Assembly: GCF_007748195.1 (NCBI RefSeq)
Contig: NZ_CP037920.1
Span: 7,002,062 to 7,066,061 of the forward strand
DNA: 64,000 nucleotides
Direction: 5' to 3'
Origin: Gimesia aquarii
GTDB taxonomy: Bacteria; Planctomycetota; Planctomycetia; Planctomycetales; Planctomycetaceae
In this document: piece after piece, positions 7,348-35,242 of the stretch
How positions within the stretch are numbered: position 1 is the first letter of the stretch
How the letters are laid out: each line of letters starts with the position of its first letter
Notes under the pieces: model-generated
What the model was told of the DNA's origin: nothing
Seen by the model: the letters and a program-made list of their open reading frames with translations, nothing else
Databases searched by the model: none
Position numbers and translations under genes: made by a program

Positions 7348-7848
7348 ACTCATCCCTGATAGTTGATCGCCTGAAAGTCATGACAAGCGATTCTGTACTA
7401 AATTTACCTATTATGCGGCTATGTACGAATAGTCCGATTATGAGGGTCTTATCGGCTGTTCTTTTTTTAAGCGAATATTAAGAAACGATGAAGGACCTTA
7501 ACATTTACTCCTTCAACGCGCACAAGCCTGAAAGAAAACCTAATCGTTACAATTTAACAACTAAAAAGTGTTCCGATTTGAACTTACCCTCGCTAAATGA
7601 GTGATTTCACTTGGAAATCACTGGGATCTGGTATTCAAAACTTTCAGGTTGAAATTCAATGATCCGGATTCATTACCGAGCAAAAGTTCAGAATCTCCTC
7701 AAATACAGTCAGAGAAGGCTCTTGCTATGATCCTTCACAAAAGCTAAAGTCAATCGCAACCAATTTGCTATTACAATATGCGAGTGATGCTTGGCCTGGA
7801 AATCTGGGAAACTCACTCTATCTGGATCTCTGGTGGCTTTTTAACTCA
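7348..7848. other. Divergent promoter region between porin and ZIP genes
   Basis: No gene is supported in these 501 bases. The clearest structure is a perfect 9-bp inverted repeat at 7600-7622. An in-frame TTG at 7765 would extend the ZIP protein by 28 residues, but that extension resembles no signal peptide and places Trp- and Asp-containing sequence ahead of a good one, so I treat it as untranslated leader. Confidence 0.5.
7600..7622. promoter_or_regulatory. Perfect 9-bp inverted repeat, candidate operator
   Basis: Arms AGTGATTTC (7600-7608) and GAAATCACT (7614-7622) are separated by five bases. It lies about 230 bases upstream of the ZIP start and 250 upstream of the porin start. Length and symmetry fit a dimeric repressor site, and a Fur-family regulator gene lies nearby, but the sequence does not match a consensus that I know. 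There is no T-run, so a terminator is unlikely. Confidence 0.35.
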
Positions 7849-8979
7849 ATGAAACCGCTCTCTCATTTCAAAAATGACGTTAAACTTACGTTACTCTTAA
7901 TGACGATCCCTCTCGTTCTGTTTTTGATCGCACCCGGATTTTTTGTTTCGCAACCTACATTGGCGGCTGAGCATACTCATCAGCATGCTGAATCTGAAAA
8001 CACATCGGAATCATCAACAGTTGCAAATGCGGATACAAAAGCACCAAACAGCATCATGTGGGCTTATACTCTGTTGGGTGTTTATTGTAGTGTCATCGTA
8101 TTCTCTTCCCTGCTGGGTGGTTGGTTACCTTCACTCATTCGCTTGACCCACACGCGTATGGAAACGCTGATCAGTTTCGTCGGTGGGCTCATGCTGGGAA
8201 TTGGCGTATTCCATCTGCTGCCGCACGCCGTGGCTGAAATGGGCTCCGTTGATCGCGCTGTCTGGTGGATGATGGCCGGTATCCTGACACTGTTTTTCCT
8301 GATTCGTACCTTCCATTTTCACCAACATGGCACCGTAGAGCTTGATGAAGAAAATGAGCACGAACACGATCATGACTGCGACCATCACCACGCTCATGCT
8401 CACGTGCACCCACATACACATTCCCATAAATTGAGTTGGGTCGGTATTGCACTGGGCTTAGCGCTACATACACTGATTGACGGTCTGGCTTTGGGTGCGA
8501 GTATCATTGCCGAGCAACATCATGAAGTCTTTCTGTCTTTGTTCGGACTGGGAACGTTTCTGGCAATCACATTACATAAACCTCTCGATGCCGTTTCGAT
8601 CACTTCTTTGATGGCAGCAGGAGGCTGGTCTGCAGGTTGGCGCAATGCCGTAAATATTGGTTTTGCCTTGATGTGTCCATTGGGAGCTTTGTTGTTTTTC
8701 CTGGGAGTTCAACAATTTTCGGAAAATCAACATATCATCATCGGATGCGCGCTCGCCTTTTCGGCGGGCGTATTTATCTGTATTTCTCTGGGAGACTTAC
8801 TGCCGGAAATGGAATTTCATTCGCATAACCGGTTTCGACTCTCCTTTGTGCTACTGCTGGGTATCGCACTCGCATATGGAATTGGTTTCATTGAACCTGA
8901 CCATGTCCATCACCATGGCAGTCATGGAGCGGATTCTTCAAATCACGAAGCCGAGCACTCACACAATCACAGTCATTAG
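7849..8979 (+). CDS. ZIP family divalent metal transporter, His-rich
   Basis: The 376-residue membrane protein should import zinc or a related metal. After a signal-like N-terminus (MKPLSHFKNDVKLTLLLMT) and a His-containing segment, three helices lead to a cytosolic-type loop packed with His, Asp and Glu (about residues 164-194, including EHEHDHDCDHHH). The metal-path helices carry LHTLIDGLALGAS and ITLHKPLDAVS, which correspond to the paired H-x-x-x-D/E motifs of ZIP helices 4 and 5. The C-terminus is again His-rich (HVHHHGSHG, EHSHNHSH). ATG at 7849 is chosen because the reading frame before it does not look coding. It converges with the Fur-family gene, with only 16 bases between stops. 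Direction of transport is inferred from the family. Confidence 0.9.
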   Translation: MKPLSHFKNDVKLTLLLMTIPLVLFLIAPGFFVSQPTLAAEHTHQHAESENTSESSTVANADTKAPNSIMWAYTLLGVYCSVIVFSSLLGGWLPSLIRLTHTRMETLISFVGGLMLGIGVFHLLPHAVAEMGSVDRAVWWMMAGILTLFFLIRTFHFHQHGTVELDEENEHEHDHDCDHHHAHAHVHPHTHSHKLSWVGIALGLALHTLIDGLALGASIIAEQHHEVFLSLFGLGTFLAITLHKPLDAVSITSLMAAGGWSAGWRNAVNIGFALMCPLGALLFFLGVQQFSENQHIIIGCALAFSAGVFICISLGDLLPEMEFHSHNRFRLSFVLLLGIALAYGIGFIEPDHVHHHGSHGADSSNHEAEHSHNHSH

Positions 8980-8995
8980 ACGAATTTATTCCCGC

Positions 8996-9439
8996 TCAAG
9001 CTTCGTCGCATTCGCTGCAAATTCCCTTCAGGAGAATTTCTGTCACTTTTCCTACCTGAGACCAATGCTTATTACTGGGTGTCTTGAATTCAACATCATG
9101 GAGACAGGAAACACTGCCACATTCGGTGCAGACGAAATGAGGGTGCTCAGCATCCTCCGGTTCATTGGGATCGCGTAATTCAAATCGCCACGCATGATCT
9201 CCGAGTTCTGTTCGCTTAACCAGCCCCGCTTCGGCAAGATCAATGAGATTGCGGTAGACAGTCGCCTTGTCAAATCCCATCGGCGTCAGATCTTCGGCAA
9301 TCTCTGCGTGCGTAAGAGGTGATGAGGCCTGACGTAGAAACTGAATGACTGTAATTCGGGCCGCAGTGCTTCGCAGGCCACTATTTCGCACCAGTGTGCG
9401 AATTTCATCAATTTCTTCTGCCTGGGACAGATTTTTCAT
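8996..9439 (-). CDS. Fur family metal-responsive repressor
   Basis: The 147-residue DNA-binding regulator has a winged helix at 10-85 (STAARITVIQFL, HAEIAEDL, KATVYRNLIDLAEAGLV) and a dimerisation half with HPHFVCTECG. Two CxxC pairs (Cys104/Cys107 and Cys141/Cys144) form the structural zinc site usual in Fur, Zur and PerR. The first ATG is at 9439; an upstream in-frame GTG at 9460 would add seven residues. Its position tail to tail with a ZIP gene, near a Zn-type ATPase and porin, suggests a Zur-like role, but Fur or PerR cannot be excluded by eye. The family call is strong, the metal specificity is inference. Confidence 0.9.
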   Translation of the reverse strand: MKNLSQAEEIDEIRTLVRNSGLRSTAARITVIQFLRQASSPLTHAEIAEDLTPMGFDKATVYRNLIDLAEAGLVKRTELGDHAWRFELRDPNEPEDAEHPHFVCTECGSVSCLHDVEFKTPSNKHWSQVGKVTEILLKGICSECDEA

Positions 9440-28020: not shown

Positions 28021-28352
28021 CTTGTAATCATCCTTGATTCACAGTTGTTGCATGTATCATTTCGCAGATTGTTTTAACACGAAAGAGGCGGAACTATAGC
28101 AAAACACTCAAAACAAGCCTACCGCGATCCCGATAAAAATAAGTCGAAATTGTTGCGACATAAGTTAGCTAACGACCATTGTTTAAGGGACTTTTTTTAA
28201 GACCCACTGATCGGGAATAATTGCAAAGATTTGCGAAAACAACACTAGCGAACGACTGGCTTATTGCATAACATTTGCAAAAACAACAGCACAAATCAGC
28301 GAAAGAATTTTCATCCGTAGTATCATTCTTCCATCGAACAAACGAGGTCAGC
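28021..28352. promoter_or_regulatory. Divergent promoter region with a 16-bp direct repeat
   Basis: No gene lies in this 332-base region. Two near-identical copies of ATTTGCRAAAACAACA occur at 28229-28244 and 28273-28288, 15 of 16 bases equal, with starts 44 bases apart (about four helical turns), the second ending 64 bases before the ABC ATPase ATG. A 10-bp palindrome GTTAGCTAAC lies at 28164-28173. Both could be regulator sites for the ABC cluster; which protein binds is unknown. Confidence 0.45.
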
Positions 28353-29027
28353 ATGTCTTTGCTGCTGGAAAACGTCAAAAAGAGCTACCGGGAACCCAAT
28401 GGTTCCATTCTCCCCATTCTGAATATTGAACGATTTGAACTGAAAGAAAGTGAACAGGTCGTGCTGATTGGCGAGAGTGGTTCAGGGAAATCGACCCTCC
28501 TGAATGTCATCTCTGGAATTACTTCAGCCGATAGCGGAAAAGTAACCATTGCTGGCACCGAAATTGCTTCGATGGCGGAGGTGGTCCGCGATCGATTTCG
28601 AGCCGAACGGATCGGTTTTGTTTTCCAGACATTCAATCTGTTACCCGCTTTTTCTGCTTTGGAAAATGTCTTGCTAGGTATGAGTTTCTCACGCGAAAAA
28701 CCAAATCGGAATCGCGCGAAAGAACTCTTGGCACAGGTTGGCTTGGAACATCGCTTACATCATCGCCCCCAACAAATGTCTGTTGGAGAACAACAGCGTG
28801 TGGCAGTCGCTCGCGCATTGGCCAATCAACCCAAGCTCTTACTCGCAGATGAACCTACCGCCAATGTGGATATTTCCAACCAGGAAACGATTCTGCAATT
28901 ATTACGAGATGCTTGCGCACAGAACCAGATTTCGATGCTGCTGGTAACACACTCACAAGAAGTCGCCAAACAGTTTGACCGCGTGGAAACGTTATCTGAT
29001 TTTAATAAAATTCACGCAGAAATATAA
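28353..29027 (+). CDS. ABC transporter ATPase, LolD/MacB type
   Basis: The 224-residue nucleotide-binding subunit has Walker A GESGSGKST, Q-loop FVFQTFNLLPAF, a signature MSVGEQQRVAVARA (Ser-Val-Gly-Glu-Gln in place of LSGGQ) and Walker B LLLADEPT, followed by the switch His (VTHS). Start ATG at 28353 has GAGG about seven bases before it. The permease follows 55 bases downstream. LolD/MacB-type pairs power extraction or movement of lipids, peptides or other cargo across the envelope by a mechanical lever. Neighbouring genes suggest a metal-linked cluster rather than lipoprotein sorting. Confidence 0.92.
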   Translation: MSLLLENVKKSYREPNGSILPILNIERFELKESEQVVLIGESGSGKSTLLNVISGITSADSGKVTIAGTEIASMAEVVRDRFRAERIGFVFQTFNLLPAFSALENVLLGMSFSREKPNRNRAKELLAQVGLEHRLHHRPQQMSVGEQQRVAVARALANQPKLLLADEPTANVDISNQETILQLLRDACAQNQISMLLVTHSQEVAKQFDRVETLSDFNKIHAEI

Positions 29028-29082
29028 CACTCATTTTATTCATGATATTTTTTATCCTCAGTGAACGAAGTAATTCCCCACT

Positions 29083-30432
29083 ATGAATACTGTCACTATT
29101 GCCTGGAAAAGTATCCAACAACGTCGCGTCTCCTCACTGTTAACGGCTTTGAGTGTCGCTTTGGGTGTCACACTCCTGGTCTCCGTCCTAGTCATCAATG
29201 ACGTCGTTGACCGTATGTTTAATCAGACTGCCAGTGGCTATGACTTGATTGTCGGTGCGCAAGGCAGCCCACTGCAATTGGTTTTGAGTACCGTCTTTCG
29301 CGTCGGAGCACCGATTGAAAACCTGCCTTACCGATACTACACCGAATTGAAAAAAGACCCACGCATTGAAGAAGCCATTCCTTTTGCAATTGGTGATGTG
29401 ACGCAGAAGGGTGCGTTCCCCATCGTAGGAACCATTCCACGTTACTTTGCGCTGGAATACATTCCCGGTCGCCATTTTCGCATTAACAAAGATGGAAAAT
29501 TTCTACCAGGAACCTGGGATGCCGTGATTGGCTCTGTGGTCGCAAAACAAAATAACTGGAAGATGGGCGATGAGTTCCAACTGATTCATGGTTCCGCAGA
29601 AAGTGGACACGTCCATGATGAAAAATTTAAAATTGTGGGTATTCTGGCACCAACGGGAACCCCCAATGATCGTACTGTGTTCGTAAATCTGCGCGGTTTT
29701 TATCAGGTCTCCGGACATGAAAAACCTCTGGATGAAGCGCTCAAACGGGAAGCTGCTTTTTTTGGAGAAGCACTCGATGAAGAAAAACTGAAAAGGTTGA
29801 TGAAAGAGAACGCAGCCCATGATCACAGTGGTCATGATCATGGACACAACCACGCACATGAAGTACCCGATGCCCAGAAAGAAGTCACCGCGATTCTCGT
29901 ACAAATGAAAGGGGACCGATTACGCGGATTTACAACAATCAAGTTTCAGTCTGAACTCAAAGAGGCGAATCAAGCGATGGCCGTCAATCCGATTCGGCAA
30001 ATCAGCTGGCTGATGACTAATATCGTGGGCAATGTGCGCACGATGCTCATCATTTTGACATCGTTGATCATTGTCGTTTCCGGCGTCAGTATTTTCGTCA
30101 GCATTTACAACTCGATGTCGGACCGCAAAAGAGAAATCGCCATTATGCGCGCCCTGGGTGCCGGGCGCACTACCGTCTTTTCGATCATTCTATCTGAATC
30201 CGTGCTGCTCTGTCTGGGTGGAGGCATCTTGGGAATCATCCTCGGACATGGTCTCGTCTTCATCGCCTCTCCCATTATCGAAGCACGTAGCGGACTGTTG
30301 ATCAACCCGTTTGCATTCAGCTCAATAGAATTGATCCTGTTGCCGATCCTTGTCGTGCTAGCTTCACTGGTAGGATTTATCCCCGCCATGACCGCATATC
30401 GAACTGATGTCGCCAGTACGTTAAGTGACTAA
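29083..30432 (+). CDS. FtsX/MacB-type ABC permease with His-rich periplasmic loop
   Basis: The 449-residue permease has the family layout: one helix near the N-terminus (about 18-45, SLLTALSVALGVTLLVSVL), a large periplasmic domain (about 46-310) and three C-terminal helices including SIFVSIYNSMSDRKREIAIMRALGA, the coupling segment that contacts the ATPase. At about residues 245-263 the periplasmic domain carries a His-rich insertion (AHDHSGHDHGHNHAHE), likely to bind zinc or a similar metal. This ties the transporter to metal handling. It is paired with the ATPase just upstream. Cargo unknown. Confidence 0.9.
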   Translation: MNTVTIAWKSIQQRRVSSLLTALSVALGVTLLVSVLVINDVVDRMFNQTASGYDLIVGAQGSPLQLVLSTVFRVGAPIENLPYRYYTELKKDPRIEEAIPFAIGDVTQKGAFPIVGTIPRYFALEYIPGRHFRINKDGKFLPGTWDAVIGSVVAKQNNWKMGDEFQLIHGSAESGHVHDEKFKIVGILAPTGTPNDRTVFVNLRGFYQVSGHEKPLDEALKREAAFFGEALDEEKLKRLMKENAAHDHSGHDHGHNHAHEVPDAQKEVTAILVQMKGDRLRGFTTIKFQSELKEANQAMAVNPIRQISWLMTNIVGNVRTMLIILTSLIIVVSGVSIFVSIYNSMSDRKREIAIMRALGAGRTTVFSIILSESVLLCLGGGILGIILGHGLVFIASPIIEARSGLLINPFAFSSIELILLPILVVLASLVGFIPAMTAYRTDVASTLSD

Positions 30433-30956
30433 GCTTATGGATCAAACCATAAGAATAATTATACAAAATAACACTTCCGGCAATTTCTAGTGGATCTGTC
30501 TGATAGTATATTGAAGACAAGGCTCATAAGTGTCTATTCAGTAATGTTTTATACTCTTTCTATCTCTTCAAATTCATTTTTTGAATGATTCTGAGTGTCA
30601 GATACATGCCTTGCATTCTTTAAGGTAGGTTAAATAATCAACGGAAATGAAATCTTCTCCGTATATACTATATTAGTAGTATTATGTAAGCTGTTGAGAG
30701 AAAAGAACCGTGGAGTGATTATTCCGGTCTTTGAAATTAATAGGGGTTCTGACTTCTCTCTCATGATTTCTGTGGTTTTCTATGGGAATTCAGGGGTGAT
30801 CTGCCCCTTTTAGCATGATATGATTTAAATAATAGGAGTTGGACCACTCTCGAATCTCTGAGCGCATTCAGTGTAAGTGAGTAGTCACGCTCTATAACTA
30901 TCATATTCGTTTTTTCTTAATTTTCATTCTTGCTGAATTTTGAAAGGCCTTGCAAA
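30433..30956. other. Intergenic region, no gene seen
   Basis: 524 A+T-rich bases between the permease and the CCFG-domain membrane protein. It contains short hairpins such as AGGGG...CCCCT around 30789-30810 followed by TTTTAG, which might be a weak terminator. A separate promoter for the next gene is likely in the later half. No coding frame is convincing. Confidence 0.4.
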
Positions 30957-31670
30957 ATGTCGCAAGTTCTTGATGGATCCAATCAATTTTTGCACGACGC
31001 GGTCGATACCCAGAACGAGTTTTCTTACAAACCTGTGCCTCCTACTGCCGTTGTTGGTTTAGCATTAGGATTGCTCTCGTTCATCGCATTGTTTGGAATT
31101 ATTGGTCTGGGGATTGCCGTCGTCGGAATCATTGTTTCTCTCATTAGCTTATTCAGTATCAAACGCGCTGCGGGTGAACTGGGAGGTAAAACAGTGGCCA
31201 TTGCAGGGGTCGCACTCTCCGCATTTTTCTTAGCCACTGGAATTTCCTATCAGTCTTATGTTTACGCGCATGAAGTCCCAGACGGTTTTCAGCGACTCAA
31301 TTTTACCAGTGATATTTCCGCCAAAGATTTTGTTCAGAAAGACGGGGTTACGCGAGTTGATCCGGAAGTACTGAAGCTGGATAAACAAAAGATCTTCCTC
31401 AAAGGTTACATGTATCCTACCAGAGATACTAAAAATCTGAAAAACTTTATTCTCGTGAAAGACAATGGTCAGTGCTGCTTTGGGGGACAACCCGATGCCA
31501 AGGATATGATCCTGGTTGAAATGCAAGGCGATCACCGTGCTGATTTTTATGCTGGCCTGGTAGCTGTGGCTGGCGAATTTCAGGCCGAAGCACCTACACA
31601 GGCAGGTGAACTGAGACCCGTTTATCAATTAAAGGGAACACATTTTGAACAGGCAAGGACCGCCTATTAA
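30957..31670 (+). CDS. Two-helix membrane protein with periplasmic CCFG (DUF3299-like) domain
   Basis: About 238 residues. Residues 25-90 hold two Gly-rich hydrophobic helices (TAVVGLALGLLSFIALFG, then AIAGVALSAFFLATG) of the DUF4190 type. The rest is predicted outside the membrane and includes KIFLKGYMYPTRDTKNL, FILVKDNGQCCFGGQP and a final strand with VAVAGEF. That arrangement (G-Y/F-M-x-P, F-x-L-x-x-D-N, CCFG, P) recurs in the next gene and resembles the DUF3299 OB-like domain of zinc-regulated clusters. AAAGG precedes the ATG by nine bases. Function unknown; the domain relation is by eye. Confidence 0.7.
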   Translation: MSQVLDGSNQFLHDAVDTQNEFSYKPVPPTAVVGLALGLLSFIALFGIIGLGIAVVGIIVSLISLFSIKRAAGELGGKTVAIAGVALSAFFLATGISYQSYVYAHEVPDGFQRLNFTSDISAKDFVQKDGVTRVDPEVLKLDKQKIFLKGYMYPTRDTKNLKNFILVKDNGQCCFGGQPDAKDMILVEMQGDHRADFYAGLVAVAGEFQAEAPTQAGELRPVYQLKGTHFEQARTAY

Positions 31671-31724
31671 TCATTGTGTCTTTGAGAAGTAGAGAGAAAG
31701 AACTATTATAAAACTTGTTTACCG

Positions 31725-31757
31725 AATGGCTCAGATTGATTGACAGTCTGAGCCATT
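31725..31757. terminator. Hairpin between the two CCFG-domain genes
   Basis: Arms AATGGCTCAGA (31725-31735) and TCTGAGCCATT (31747-31757) pair perfectly around 11 bases. No strong T-run follows, so it may be a weak terminator, a processing site or an attenuating structure in front of the GTG start at 31812. Confidence 0.55.
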
Positions 31758-31811
31758 ATCAACTTTGTAACGAAGTTGGTGCAACCACCCGATCATCAGG
31801 AGTTTGATCAC

Positions 31812-32693
31812 GTGCAGGCCCACCTTTATCCCACCCGACAGACAACATTATTTTTGGTTTTCCTGATTCTGAGTAGTCTTCCTGTTTTAGGAACAGGCTG
31901 TACATCATCAGAGCCGACAGAGTATCGCCAGTTCAGCGATCAGATTGACCAAAAGAGTCAAGATACTAGCCCCACTGAGATTGTCGATTCAAAATCATCT
32001 GTCGACAGTCAGCAAACACAAAATGCTGCAACAACACCTGAAACAAGATCGCCACCAGAAATAGACAAACCAAAAGAGACTTCTGAAGAAAAAATTCTGG
32101 CCCAGGCAACCTCAAAACAGACCGTACAAAAAACGGAAACCAAAGTTTCAGAAGATAAAACCCTGGCGCTCGTCGCACGTAAACCAAATCCGAAAGATCG
32201 TGCATTAACAGAACAGGAAAAAAAAGAACTAGCTGCTCTCGAACCTCGAGAAGTTAAATTGCTCATCAAAAATCGTACTTTTCAAAAAACATCACCTGGA
32301 GACGCTCTGCGTGTCTCCTATGACGATATTGATTTGTTGAAAGTGCTGAATATGGAACCGGTCACTCCCAATGCACCGGAATTAATGCCACAATGGTTAA
32401 AGAATCTGGATGGCGCGCGGATTCGTATTCGAGGGTTTATGTATCCTCCCTTTCAGCAGACTGGAAATGAATTTTTCATGCTGGCCCGTGACAATCAGAT
32501 CTGTTGTTTTGGGAAAAACCCGAAAATTTATGACTTATTTCCCGTTGTGATGCGTGACGGCGTGACAACCGACTATATTCTGAACCGCCCCTTTGACGTG
32601 GTAGGCACGTTCCATATTAAAGCGGAATCTATCGATGATGAACTAGAGCGTATCTATATGATCGACGACGCCATCGTCATCGATCAAAAATGA
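31812..32693 (+). CDS. Lipoprotein with CCFG (DUF3299-like) domain
   Basis: About 293 residues. The start is taken as GTG at 31812, with CAGGAG eight bases ahead; it gives a clean lipoprotein signal (FLVFLILSSLPVLGTGC, lipobox ending in Cys). A long low-complexity linker rich in Ser, Thr, Glu and Lys follows (to about 165). The C-terminal domain reads RIRIRGFMYPPFQQTG, FFMLARDNQICCFG and DVVGTFHI, clearly alignable with the end of the preceding gene. Two adjacent Cys could form a redox or metal site. Position and domain tie it to the ABC transporter upstream. Function unknown. Confidence 0.72.
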   Translation: MQAHLYPTRQTTLFLVFLILSSLPVLGTGCTSSEPTEYRQFSDQIDQKSQDTSPTEIVDSKSSVDSQQTQNAATTPETRSPPEIDKPKETSEEKILAQATSKQTVQKTETKVSEDKTLALVARKPNPKDRALTEQEKKELAALEPREVKLLIKNRTFQKTSPGDALRVSYDDIDLLKVLNMEPVTPNAPELMPQWLKNLDGARIRIRGFMYPPFQQTGNEFFMLARDNQICCFGKNPKIYDLFPVVMRDGVTTDYILNRPFDVVGTFHIKAESIDDELERIYMIDDAIVIDQK

Positions 32694-32769: not shown

Positions 32770-33960
32770 ATGAATCGTCTCAAACACAACGTCAATAACC
32801 GATTTTTTATGGGACTCCTCTGCAGTCTGATTGTGATTTCACAGTCAAGCTACGCGGTAGCCTGCCCTTTCTGTTCTGCTCCTTCACTGACGTTGACCGA
32901 ACAGCTCTCGCAATCTGATGTTGCCGTCCTGGCACAATGGACAGAGGCAGAAAAAGGTACGTTAGAAAAAGCCGGCAAGACGGTTTTTGAAATTAAAGAA
33001 ATTGTCAAACAATCGGACAAAGACAAACTGAAAGTCGGCGATAAGATCGTTATCAATCGTCATCGTCCTGGTAAAAAAGGAAACTTGTTTTTACTACTCG
33101 GTACCAAAGGTACCAGCGTTGATTGGGGGGACCCGATTGAAGTGACAGAAACAAGCTTCCACTACATCTCACAAGCACCTCCTCCTGAGGAAAAGACATC
33201 CAAGCGTTTACGTTATTTCCTGAAGTTCCTGGAATATCCTGATCAGATGGTCGCAAACGATGCGTATGCAGAATTTGCCAATGCCCCTTATGAAGATATC
33301 ACGCCTCTTGCGAAAGACATGCCACGGGAAAAAATTCGGAAATGGGTCGTTGATTCCAATACTCCCGTGACTCGCCTGGGGCTATATGGTCTGTTACTGG
33401 GGTTATGTGGACAGGAATCTGACGTCGCCTTTATGGAAAAGAAGATTAATGAACCGACTAAAGAGTTTCGACTGGGCATTGATGGTGTCATTTCTGGATA
33501 TCTGCTACTGACTGGTGCAGATGGTTTGGACAAAATTGATGAAACCAAGTTTATCCCCAAGAAAGTTGCCTTTAGCGAAACTTACGCCGCCATGCAGGCA
33601 CTACGTTTCATGTGGACTTACGCAGATGGCCGTATCAGTAAGGACCGCTTGCGTAAATCAATGCGTTTATTATTGGATCGTCCCGAATTGACAGATCTCG
33701 TTGTGGCTGATCTCGCACGCTGGGATGACTGGAGCGTCCTGGATCGCTTGATGGAAATGTATGGTACAGGAGATTATGACATCCCTTCTATTAAGCGTGC
33801 CATTGTGCGTTATCTGCTGGTCGCTTCCAAAGGCAAGAACAAAAAAGGAGGCGGAGCAGACCCGGCAACGGCGGAGAAAGCAAAGCTACTGCTTGACAAA
33901 TTACGTAAAGAAGACCCCAAAACAGTCAAAAGTGCAGAACGCTTCTTTTTCTTCAAATAA
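32770..33960 (+). CDS. Secreted CPFCS protein, first copy of tandem pair
   Basis: The 396-residue protein has a signal peptide ending near SSYAVA, so the mature chain would begin at or near Cys in CPFCSAPSLTLTEQL. The next 110 residues look like a beta-barrel of the OB/NTR type (SDVAVLAQWTE, TVFEIKEIVKQ, KVGDKIVINRHRPG, LFLLLGT). An N-terminal Cys followed by such a barrel recalls the TIMP/netrin-like domain. The remaining 250 residues are helical, perhaps HEAT-like (GLYGLLLGLCGQESD, DLARWDDWSVLDRLMEMYG). No catalytic motif seen. The next gene is its paralogue. Function unknown. Confidence 0.72.
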   Translation: MNRLKHNVNNRFFMGLLCSLIVISQSSYAVACPFCSAPSLTLTEQLSQSDVAVLAQWTEAEKGTLEKAGKTVFEIKEIVKQSDKDKLKVGDKIVINRHRPGKKGNLFLLLGTKGTSVDWGDPIEVTETSFHYISQAPPPEEKTSKRLRYFLKFLEYPDQMVANDAYAEFANAPYEDITPLAKDMPREKIRKWVVDSNTPVTRLGLYGLLLGLCGQESDVAFMEKKINEPTKEFRLGIDGVISGYLLLTGADGLDKIDETKFIPKKVAFSETYAAMQALRFMWTYADGRISKDRLRKSMRLLLDRPELTDLVVADLARWDDWSVLDRLMEMYGTGDYDIPSIKRAIVRYLLVASKGKNKKGGGADPATAEKAKLLLDKLRKEDPKTVKSAERFFFFK

Positions 33961-34051: not shown

Positions 34052-35242
34052 ATGACTGGACGAAAACAACACATGAAAGTTCGCATTGGTATAGGACTGC
34101 TGAGTGCGCTACTCATATTTTCAAATGCAATCACGCTTCATGCATGCCCTTTCTGCTCTGGCCCCTCGCGAACATTGACTGAGCAACTCTCTGAATCTGA
34201 AATAACTGTTCTCGCGAAATGGATTGAAACAAAAAAAGGAACACTGGAAAGATCTGGTAATACGCTTTTTGAAATCAAAAAAGTTATTCGTCAGTCCTAC
34301 AAGGACCATTTGGATGTAGGCGATCAAATCATCATCAATCGACATCGCTCCGGGAAAAGAAGTCAGTTGTTTTTATTACTGGGAACCAACGAGACCAGTA
34401 TGAATTGGAAAAACCTGATTCCAATTACCGAAACCTGTTTTCAATACGTTTCTCAAGCTCCTCCCGCAAAAGAACAAACATCCAAACGCCTGCGGTATTT
34501 CCTGAAGTTTCTGGAACACTCAGATCCGATGATCGCCAATGATGCCTTTGCTGAATTTGCGAATGCTCCCTACGAAAAGATCACTCCTCTCGCCAAAGAG
34601 CTGCCGCGAAAAAAAATTCGAACATGGATTGTGAGTCCTGATACCCCTGTAGTCCGATTGGGGTTGTATGGCTTGTTACTGGGGCTGTGTGGACAGGAAT
34701 CAGATATTGCATTTATGGAATCGAAGATCAATGAACCCGTTAAAAAAGTTCGATTTGGCATTGATGGCCTGATCTCAGGATACCTGCTACAGACCGGTGC
34801 AGATGGGTTAGACAAAATTGAACAAACCAAATTCATTTCCGAAACAGTTCCTTACTCTGAAACAAAAGCCGCGATACAAGCGTTGTATTTTATGTGGGCT
34901 TATGGAAATGAACGGATCAGCAAAGAACGATTGCGAAAGTCAATGAGACTGCTGCTGGATCGACCTGAGTTAACCGACCTGGTAATCGCGGATCTTGCAC
35001 GCTGGAATGATTGGAGCGTACTGGATCGTCTAATGCAAATGTATCAAACAGAAGACTATAGTAACTCTTCGATCAAACGCGCCATTATAAGATATCTTTT
35101 GGTCGCCTCTAAAGGTAGAAACAAAAAAGGGATTGGTGCCGATCTCAATACTGCAGAAAAAGCAAAGCAGTTTATTAATAAACTGCGTAAAGAAGATCCA
35201 AAAACAGTCCAAAGCGCAGAACGCTTATTCATCGTTCGATAA
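34052..35242 (+). CDS. Secreted CPFCS protein, second copy of tandem pair
   Basis: Also 396 residues and alignable from end to end with the preceding gene: CPFCSGPSRTLTEQLSES, DVGDQIIINRHRSGK, LRYFLKFLEHSD and RLRKSMRLLLDRPELTDL recur with scattered substitutions, so this is a gene duplication old enough to have diverged. ATG at 34052 has AAGGA six bases before it; an upstream in-frame TTG would lengthen it by nine residues. The signal peptide is IGLLSALLIFSNAITLHA. Lying 91 bases after its sister, it is likely co-transcribed. Function unknown. Confidence 0.72.
   Translation: MTGRKQHMKVRIGIGLLSALLIFSNAITLHACPFCSGPSRTLTEQLSESEITVLAKWIETKKGTLERSGNTLFEIKKVIRQSYKDHLDVGDQIIINRHRSGKRSQLFLLLGTNETSMNWKNLIPITETCFQYVSQAPPAKEQTSKRLRYFLKFLEHSDPMIANDAFAEFANAPYEKITPLAKELPRKKIRTWIVSPDTPVVRLGLYGLLLGLCGQESDIAFMESKINEPVKKVRFGIDGLISGYLLQTGADGLDKIEQTKFISETVPYSETKAAIQALYFMWAYGNERISKERLRKSMRLLLDRPELTDLVIADLARWNDWSVLDRLMQMYQTEDYSNSSIKRAIIRYLLVASKGRNKKGIGADLNTAEKAKQFINKLRKEDPKTVQSAERLFIVR

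What the first reader, a model, noticed from the sequence alone, without database searches (positions are those of the whole stretch)
28353..32693. MacB-type ABC transporter with His-rich permease and two CCFG-domain proteins: a candidate metal system
A LolD/MacB-type ATPase, a permease with an inserted AHDHSGHDHGHNHAHE loop, a membrane protein and a lipoprotein sharing a G-Y/F-M-x-P ... CCFG domain follow in order. As I recall, zinc-regulated (Zur) clusters of Pseudomonas and Vibrio pair a similar ABC unit with a His-rich protein and a DUF3299 OB-like protein. Here the His-rich part is inside the permease and the OB-like domain is duplicated and differently anchored. The fused and doubled layout appears to be a planctomycete variant not described to my knowledge.
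Basis: partly seen in the sequence, partly recalled or inferred. Interest (0 to 1): 0.62.

Follow-up and report, generated by a model that had tools for sequence, protein, structure and literature searches.

The report
Planctomycete Zrg-like zinc-starvation operon
A planctomycete gene cluster that very probably helps the cell cope with zinc shortage: it looks like a distinct branch of a little-understood bacterial zinc system, with its own predicted control site and an extra partner protein.

Summary
In detail: LolD-like ATPase, MacB-like permease with a His-rich loop, membrane CCFG protein, lipoprotein CCFG protein. The main interpretation holds too. The CCFG domain is DUF3299, the OB-fold family of Zrg/PA4063-4066 zinc-starvation operons: a CCFG profile finds one PDB chain, PA4066/4HSP (E=3.5e-10), and the predicted fold matches it best.

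New evidence ties it to zinc. A 17-bp palindrome, TTGCAAnTnAnTTGCAA, precedes the operon. In 97 loci not used to define it, 7 of 11 copies lie just upstream of the ATPase gene (p=4e-9; 25 decoys gave at most 1). It also precedes the genome's ZigA zinc-chaperone GTPase gene. Permease and CCFG genes co-occur (both in 53 of 149 genomes, neither in 88). Two permease histidines are nearly invariant.

Two claims fail. The His loop and the doubled DUF3299 are not planctomycete-specific: alphaproteobacterial relatives have one or the other. ZrgA (DUF2796) is missing, so this is Zrg-like, not ZrgABCDE. Zinc response, regulator and transport direction are untested.

The parts
28264..28280 (.). Candidate Zur-type operator TTGCATAACATTTGCAA (2 mismatches to TTGCAAnTnAnTTGCAA), 72 bp before the ATPase start codon
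   Evidence: held-out enrichment of the motif upstream of ATPase genes in relatives. A second, weaker palindrome of different spacing, TTGCAAAGATTTGCGAA, is seen by eye at 28221-28237.
28353..29027 (+). ABC ATPase, LolD/MacB type
   Evidence: ABC_tran E=1.4e-35; best NCBIfam LolD 207.2 bits, below cut-off 307.75
29083..30432 (+). MacB/FtsX-type permease of the ZrgB-like branch; His169 and His212 nearly invariant
   Evidence: MacB_PCD and FtsX over cut-off; conservation in 101 permeases; comparison with Pseudomonadota, Deinococcus and E. coli LolC/LolE/MacB; tree
29815..29862 (+). His-rich loop AHDHSGHDHGHNHAHE in the periplasmic domain of the permease
   Evidence: Sequence; variable among relatives
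30957..31670 (+). CCFG1: N-terminal membrane segments plus DUF3299 domain (start codon inferred)
   Evidence: PF11736 25.7 bits, cut-off 22; domain 31257-31655
31812..32693 (+). CCFG2: probable lipoprotein with C-terminal DUF3299 domain (start codon inferred)
   Evidence: No Pfam match of its own; domain 32277-32687 by CCFG profile; model pLDDT 91.5, best match 4HSP
32770..33960 (+). HEAT1: secreted protein, mature N-terminus predicted at or next to CPFC, small beta domain (possibly NTR-like) plus HEAT-type helices
   Evidence: found with the system only
34052..35242 (+). HEAT2: tandem paralogue of HEAT1 (72% identical over the mature part)

Best explanation
A planctomycete branch of the Zrg type of zinc-starvation system. 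Under zinc shortage a Fur-family repressor (most likely Zur) leaves the TTGCAAnTnAnTTGCAA box and the ATPase-permease unit is made, together with, or from a second promoter, two DUF3299 proteins and the HEAT proteins. The permease has the MacB/LolCDE architecture, so it most likely acts by mechanotransmission: ATP use in the cytoplasm moves its periplasmic domain. The His-rich loop and the two conserved histidines gather zinc, and the movement passes it to or from the two DUF3299 OB domains, one anchored in the inner membrane and one on a lipoprotein, as a relay through the periplasm. Shown here: gene content, families, co-occurrence, conserved residues, box. Inferred: zinc as ligand, Zur as regulator, the relay and its direction.
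For: DUF3299 identity of both CCFG proteins. Permease belongs with those of DUF2796-DUF3299 clusters. Co-occurrence 53/3/5/88 of 149 genomes. Box enrichment in held-out loci, 7 of 11, p=4e-9, decoys at most 1; same box before a gene whose product meets the ZigA cut-off, 601.2 against 600, and near MerC, ArsP_1 and His-rich genes in G048 and a His-rich gene in G105. His169 in 100 and His212 in 98 of 101 permeases. A second, distant member of the permease family in the same genome lies in one gene string with a ZnuA-family binding protein. Zrg genes are induced by zinc starvation in Vibrio (PMC9817125, passages).
Against: The box was found in only 9 of 44 scorable CCFG-bearing loci, four of them the defining loci or a near twin, and three boxed places in the own genome (538717, 5256187, 6164873) showed no metal gene. 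In G105 the pattern is no commoner than its reversed control (13 against 13). No box in the four family genomes where the genes are split (L183-L186 at 2 mismatches or fewer). The Fur-family protein in the window scores best with PerR and Fur models, below cut-offs. No ZrgA. About 500 bp separate permease and CCFG1, so one transcript is not shown. No metal-binding data.
Confidence: 0.68

Rival explanations
1. A MacB-type exporter made under zinc limitation that sends out a metallophore or surplus cobalt, as proposed for PA4064-PA4065; the DUF3299 proteins would be helpers.
For: MacB-like permease; the P. aeruginosa work reads the homologous unit as an exporter of pyochelin-cobalt (PMC11481552, passages).
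Against: No metallophore gene cluster was looked for or seen beside the operon; ZrgA in V. cholerae is needed for growth without zinc, read there as import (PMC9820375, passages); in the own genome a distant relative of the permease is paired with a ZnuA-family binding protein.
Confidence: 0.15
2. A LolCDE-like unit for lipoprotein release or envelope remodelling, with no direct role of a metal; the DUF3299 and HEAT proteins would be cargo or chaperones.
For: The ATPase scores best with LolD; the permease profile matches MacB, LolF, LolE and LolC in the PDB; CCFG2 is a probable lipoprotein.
Against: LolD cut-off not met; His169/His212 are absent in E. coli LolC, LolE and MacB; the box also precedes a ZigA-type gene.
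Confidence: 0.07
3. A metal system, but controlled by another Fur-family regulator (Fur or PerR type) and serving another metal such as iron, manganese, copper or cobalt.
For: The box has the general form of Fur-family operators (recalled); the Fur-family protein in the window scores best with PerR and Fur models.
Against: Those neighbours of the box that could be named are ZigA, His-rich proteins, MerC and ArsP_1; DUF3299 operons studied so far respond to zinc.
Confidence: 0.1

Closest known systems
ZrgABCDE of Vibrio cholerae and V. parahaemolyticus (PMC9817125, PMC9820375; passages seen)
   Same: LolD/MacB-type ATPase, MacB-like permease, DUF3299 protein in one cluster; link to zinc starvation
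   Different: No ZrgA (DUF2796) and no ZrgD seen; two DUF3299 proteins of the CCFG subtype, one membrane-anchored and one a lipoprotein; His-rich stretch in the permease; HEAT proteins added; a different box
PA4063-PA4066 of Pseudomonas aeruginosa (PMC11481552, PMC8561739; passages seen)
   Same: Same core; PA4066 (4HSP) is the nearest solved structure to the CCFG domain
   Different: As above; proposed there to export pyochelin-cobalt
DUF2796-ATPase-permease-DUF3299 clusters on plasmids of Sulfitobacter, Phaeobacter, Pseudooceanicola
   Same: Core genes; two DUF3299 genes in Sulfitobacter and Pseudooceanicola; Fur gene in Phaeobacter, COG0523-type GTPase in Pseudooceanicola
   Different: DUF2796 present, no His loop in the permease, GACIHVPPPP in place of CCFG
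Alkaline phosphatase-linked ABC units of Shinella, Paracoccus and Deinococcus
   Same: Same permease family, an OB-like small protein with CPFC (by eye), His loop in the permease of Shinella and Paracoccus, no DUF2796 annotated
   Different: Single small partner, alkaline phosphatase gene beside it, no HEAT protein
LolCDE and MacAB-TolC
   Same: ATPase and permease architecture
   Different: No HG histidine, no DUF3299 partner

Membership tests
DUF3299 (PF11736) | Profile match over the curated cut-off | tested here: met
   CCFG1 25.7 bits against 22. CCFG2 alone gave no match; 16 of 17 CCFG proteins match at E<=0.1
DUF3299 (PF11736) | OB-like fold of PA4066 (4HSP) | tested here: met
   Profile to 4HSP E=3.5e-10; CCFG2 model: only Foldseek match at E<=0.001, Z 8.9 over 116 residues, rmsd 3.3
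ZrgB-like permease branch | HG histidine, second histidine near residue 212 and TPxDR motif in the periplasmic domain (features defined here, not by a published model) | tested here: met
   clade of 48 rows with E. coli LolC, LolE and MacB outside, 99/97, with long-branch warnings
ZrgABCDE / PA4063-PA4066 system | ATPase, MacB-like permease and DUF3299 gene in one cluster | tested here: met
ZrgABCDE / PA4063-PA4066 system | ZrgA (DUF2796, PF10986) binding protein | tested here: not met
   No match in the operon proteins; own genome only a 42-position match below cut-off; 1 of 149 genomes over the cut-off
ZrgABCDE / PA4063-PA4066 system | Control by Zur | tested here: inconclusive
   Conserved palindrome, also before a ZigA-type gene; regulator not identified, no binding data
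ZrgABCDE / PA4063-PA4066 system | Induction by zinc starvation and effect on zinc-limited growth | not testable with these tools
   Needs culture work
LolCDE | LolD and LolC/LolE equivalog models over cut-off | tested here: not met
   LolD 207.2 against 307.75; lolCE 41.4 against 362.45
MacB | MacB equivalog model over cut-off; ATPase and permease in one chain | tested here: not met
   PRK10535 152.6 and 37.6 against 966; two separate genes
NTR/TIMP-like domain (HEAT1 N-terminus) | NTR fold | tested here: inconclusive
   TIMP-1 entries in 4 and a complement C3 C-terminal-domain entry in 1 of the 50 Foldseek rows, probability 0.99-1.00 but E 0.029-0.059; none in the 50 VIA rows, which the helical part fills
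NTR/TIMP-like domain (HEAT1 N-terminus) | Sequence profile match | tested here: not met
   No NTR or TIMP family among the matches of the 24 HEAT proteins at E<=1; no PDB chain at E<=10 with the N-domain profile

The most novel reading that the evidence does not exclude
A zinc-transfer machine in which a MacB-type mechanotransmitter carries its own zinc site (His169, His212 and the His loop) and hands zinc along a relay of DUF3299 domains anchored at two places in the envelope, together with a bacterial TIMP-like NTR-HEAT protein whose mature N-terminal Cys-x-x-Cys binds zinc or a zinc enzyme. It would be a way for an ABC protein to handle zinc that is neither a channel-type importer nor a drug exporter.
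Probability: 0.2. Interest if true: 0.78.

Novelty: new variant of a known kind. Interest (0 to 1): 0.56.

Why it matters
The Zrg/PA4063-4066 system has been studied in Vibrio and Pseudomonas, and its direction is read in opposite ways in print (zinc import, PMC9820375; pyochelin-cobalt export, PMC11481552). A large planctomycete branch without ZrgA suggests which parts are the core (ATPase, HG-type permease, DUF3299) and points to two conserved permease histidines that the passages I saw do not mention. The box offers a directly testable way into a zinc regulon of planctomycetes; my searches listed no paper that describes this operon. The HEAT proteins are a new candidate component.

Tried and rejected
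Chance neighbourhood: rejected by recurrence and co-occurrence. 'The His loop is the essential zinc site': weakened, since the loop varies (at least 4 His in 49 of 92 scorable permeases) while His169 and His212 are nearly constant; the His-rich loop of V. cholerae ZrgA was also dispensable (PMC9820375, passages). 'Planctomycete-only fused and doubled layout': rejected. 'His-rich stretch sits either in the permease or in a separate protein': not tested statistically, and Catenovulum and Deinococcus have neither a permease loop nor a DUF2796 gene annotated in the stretch shown.

Box: my first pattern, TTGCAWANNWTTTGCAA, gave 59 and 63 matches on the two strands against 41 and 53 for its reversed control and was replaced by the 17-bp form. 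That form gave 70 against 31 in the own genome, 58 against 26 in G048, 31 against 23 in G137 and 13 against 13 in G105 (place lists capped, G137 places not shown), so genome-wide counts alone prove little. Boxes at G000 538717, 5256187 and 6164873 had no metal gene that I could recognise. The two ZnuA-type loci have no box at 2 mismatches or fewer (L080, L081). The ZIP gene in the window has only a 3-mismatch site. In one search the counted zone was slightly wider (440 bp) than the base count used for the test (400 bp), two boxed loci (L099, L135) had no ATPase detected and counted as misses, and relatedness or duplicate genomes among loci were not corrected; the same holds for the Fisher test. 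Shuffles were single-base shuffles, 20 per set.

The window Fur-family protein could not be assigned to Zur. Promoter and terminator scans gave about the shuffled counts. HEAT1 has no Pfam family at E<=0.001; NTR resemblance is weak in E-value. The other rows are general OB folds at Z 7.6 or less. A DUF1980/YcgQ link (one CCFG member E=0.0076; CCFG2 to TIGR03943 E=0.061) was followed by one paper search only, whose eight listed papers do not hold the term.
Full report
WHAT IS THERE. The window is part of a 7.4-Mb planctomycete chromosome, G000:C1:7002062-7066061. The four genes of the finding are on the + strand: ATPase 28353-29027, permease 29083-30432, CCFG1 about 30957-31670, CCFG2 about 31812-32693. 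Two tandem paralogues follow, 32770-33960 and about 34052-35242. The close relative G048 has the whole set (L035).

FAMILIES. The ATPase is nearest LolD but below that model's cut-off; the permease has MacB_PCD and FtsX domains. CCFG1 matches DUF3299 over the cut-off; CCFG2 has no Pfam match of its own. A profile of 17 planctomycete CCFG proteins finds one chain in the PDB at E<=10, 4hsp (PA4066), E=3.5e-10; 16 of the 17 match DUF3299 at E<=0.1. The AlphaFold model of the CCFG2 domain (pLDDT 91.5) has 4hsp as its only match at E<=0.001 and its only match with Z>=8 (Z 8.9, 116 residues, rmsd 3.3). The motif differs: the DUF3299 proteins of the proteobacterial clusters read GAC(I/L/V)H.PPPP where these read CCFG. 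In 44 CCFG domains the two Cys are kept in 43 and 42.

CONSERVED UNIT. In 149 planctomycete genomes the permease is found in 56 (E<=1e-20) and CCFG domains in 58 (E<=0.001); 53 have both, 3 only the permease, 5 only CCFG, 88 neither (relatedness not corrected). Where the genes are together the usual order is ATPase-permease-CCFG(-CCFG); HEAT genes follow the CCFG genes in the window's relatives or stand between permease and CCFG in others. Many loci of the window's family in the genome-contig scan hold ATPase and permease without CCFG genes nearby (only the best 80 of 394 confirmed loci were returned). In four genomes of that family (G024, G069, G087, G121) the CCFG and HEAT genes lie together elsewhere.

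THE MISSED COMPONENT. The HEAT proteins occur in 10 of 149 genomes at E<=1e-10, all 10 of which have both permease and CCFG genes, and in all 8 sampled genomes of the window's class. All 24 aligned mature parts begin x-C-x-x-C. The model (pLDDT 91.7) is a small beta domain followed by HEAT/ARM-type helices. Foldseek has TIMP-1 entries in four and a complement C3 C-terminal-domain entry in one of its 50 rows, probability 0.99-1.00 but E 0.029-0.059. I read this as a possible NTR-like domain; sequence profiles do not confirm it. TIMPs use their N-terminal Cys to chelate a protease zinc (recalled), which makes the N-terminal CPFC of interest. The predicted cleavage just before the Cys is by eye.

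THE PERMEASE. In 101 planctomycete-type permeases His169 is kept in 100, His212 in 98, Asp196 in 101 (one locus, L156, is labelled Bacteroidetes). His169 is in all 8 Pseudomonadota and Deinococcus relatives aligned and in none of E. coli LolC, LolE, MacB. At position 212 the relatives are shifted in the alignment, but each has a His within a few residues, by eye. The His-rich loop comes after His212. It has at least 4 His in 49 of 92 scorable permeases. It also occurs in Shinella and Paracoccus relatives without an annotated DUF2796 gene and is missing in three relatives that have DUF2796. In five loci whose permease lacks it a secreted protein family lies nearby (L043, L045, L048, L049, L053), strongly His-rich in L048 and L053 (the other three not checked one by one). 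Catenovulum and Deinococcus show neither. So 'loop in the permease or separate His-rich protein' is a lead, not a result.

THE BOX. A 17-bp palindrome TTGCAAnTnAnTTGCAA was derived from the upstream regions of the window, G137 and G105. Within 400 bp upstream of the ATPase it is present at 2 mismatches or fewer in 9 of 44 scorable CCFG-bearing loci and 2 of 41 others (85 of 101 loci scorable), against none in 20 shuffles; four of the nine are the window, its near twin L035, L040 and L042. In 97 held-out loci (1.15 Mb) there are 11 such boxes, 7 of them upstream of the ATPase, a zone of 2.8% of the bases (p=4e-9); 25 decoy motifs gave at most 1 there. In the own genome the box precedes a COG0523 gene, about 6 kb before the window, whose product meets the NCBIfam cut-off for the zinc chaperone GTPase ZigA, 601.2 against 600. 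In G048 four boxes lie around genes for MerC, an ArsP_1 permease and two His-rich proteins, and in G105 one precedes a His-rich secreted protein. Three other boxed places in the own genome had no metal gene that I could recognise, and no box was found at the split loci. ZigA-type GTPases are classic Zur targets (recalled). The regulator is not identified.

WIDER LINKS. The permease finds 114 plasmid records. I opened eight; one has no annotation. Three hold DUF2796-ATPase-permease-DUF3299 clusters, with a Fur gene in Phaeobacter, a COG0523-type GTPase and DUF1826 in Pseudooceanicola, and two DUF3299 genes in Sulfitobacter and Pseudooceanicola; Catenovulum has MerC and DUF3299 beside the unit; Deinococcus, Shinella and Paracoccus have an alkaline phosphatase and a small CPFC protein. 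In a tree the planctomycete and proteobacterial permeases form one clade with E. coli LolC, LolE and MacB outside (99/97, with long-branch warnings; midpoint root). In the own genome a distant member of the permease family (26% identity over 359 columns) lies between a LolD-like ATPase and a ZnuA-family binding protein, with overlapping or nearly touching genes; it lacks the HG histidine.

LITERATURE. Vibrio zrg genes are strongly induced without zinc (PMC9817125, passages); ZrgA is needed for the system's function and ZrgB is predicted to have the MacB form (PMC9820375, passages). PA4063-PA4066 is read as a MacB exporter of pyochelin-cobalt (PMC11481552, passages). PA4066 has an OB-like fold and unknown role (PMC8561739, passages). 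Four papers in the library hold 'DUF3299', none about planctomycetes by title (listing). Searches on Zur with planctomycetes and on zinc uptake, ABC transporter, histidine-rich and planctomycetes listed no paper that by title or abstract describes this operon (10 of 36 shown). PMC10957091 treats ZepA, a different protein (passages and one section).

VERDICT. The zinc reading is well supported and not proven. The layout is not planctomycete-specific as stated, but the CCFG subtype with membrane and lipoprotein anchoring, the missing ZrgA, the HEAT proteins and the box make it a distinct variant of a known kind.

Noticed in passing
window 7849-8979 (+) and 8996-9439 (-): A ZIP-family zinc transporter gene with His-rich stretches (PF02535 95.6 bits) faces a Fur-family regulator gene (PF01475 57.2 bits); a 3-mismatch box lies at 7754 before the ZIP gene.
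   Followed up: partly
L079 (G000:C1:6990000-7003000), just before the window: Boxed ZigA-type GTPase gene followed by an oxidoreductase-like gene, two related unnamed proteins and a second COG0523 GTPase gene.
   Followed up: partly
L084 (G048:C1:1090000-1102000); L088 is the similar region of G000: Four boxes in 7 kb around MerC, an ArsP_1 (YraQ-type) permease, two His-rich proteins and DUF1559-type genes; L088 has two boxes.
   Followed up: partly
L081:668-3479 (G000:C1:2676667-2679478): A second MacB-like ATPase-permease pair, distantly related to the one in the window, in one string of genes with a ZnuA-family binding protein.
   Followed up: partly
L178, L179, L180: Deinococcus, Shinella and Paracoccus plasmids carry alkaline phosphatase, a small secreted OB-like CPFC protein, ATPase and permease in a row; a third type of this family.
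   Followed up: partly
L155, L159, L163, L165: A family of His-rich lipoprotein-like proteins lies near the permease in four loci; the L159 member has a long HDHDH stretch.
   Followed up: no
L098, L109, L111, L162: COG0523-like GTPase genes (by eye) lie in the same loci as the ATPase-permease pair.
   Followed up: no
window 30433-30956: A gap of about 500 bp between permease and CCFG1, without a box at 2 mismatches or fewer, leaves open a second promoter.
   Followed up: no
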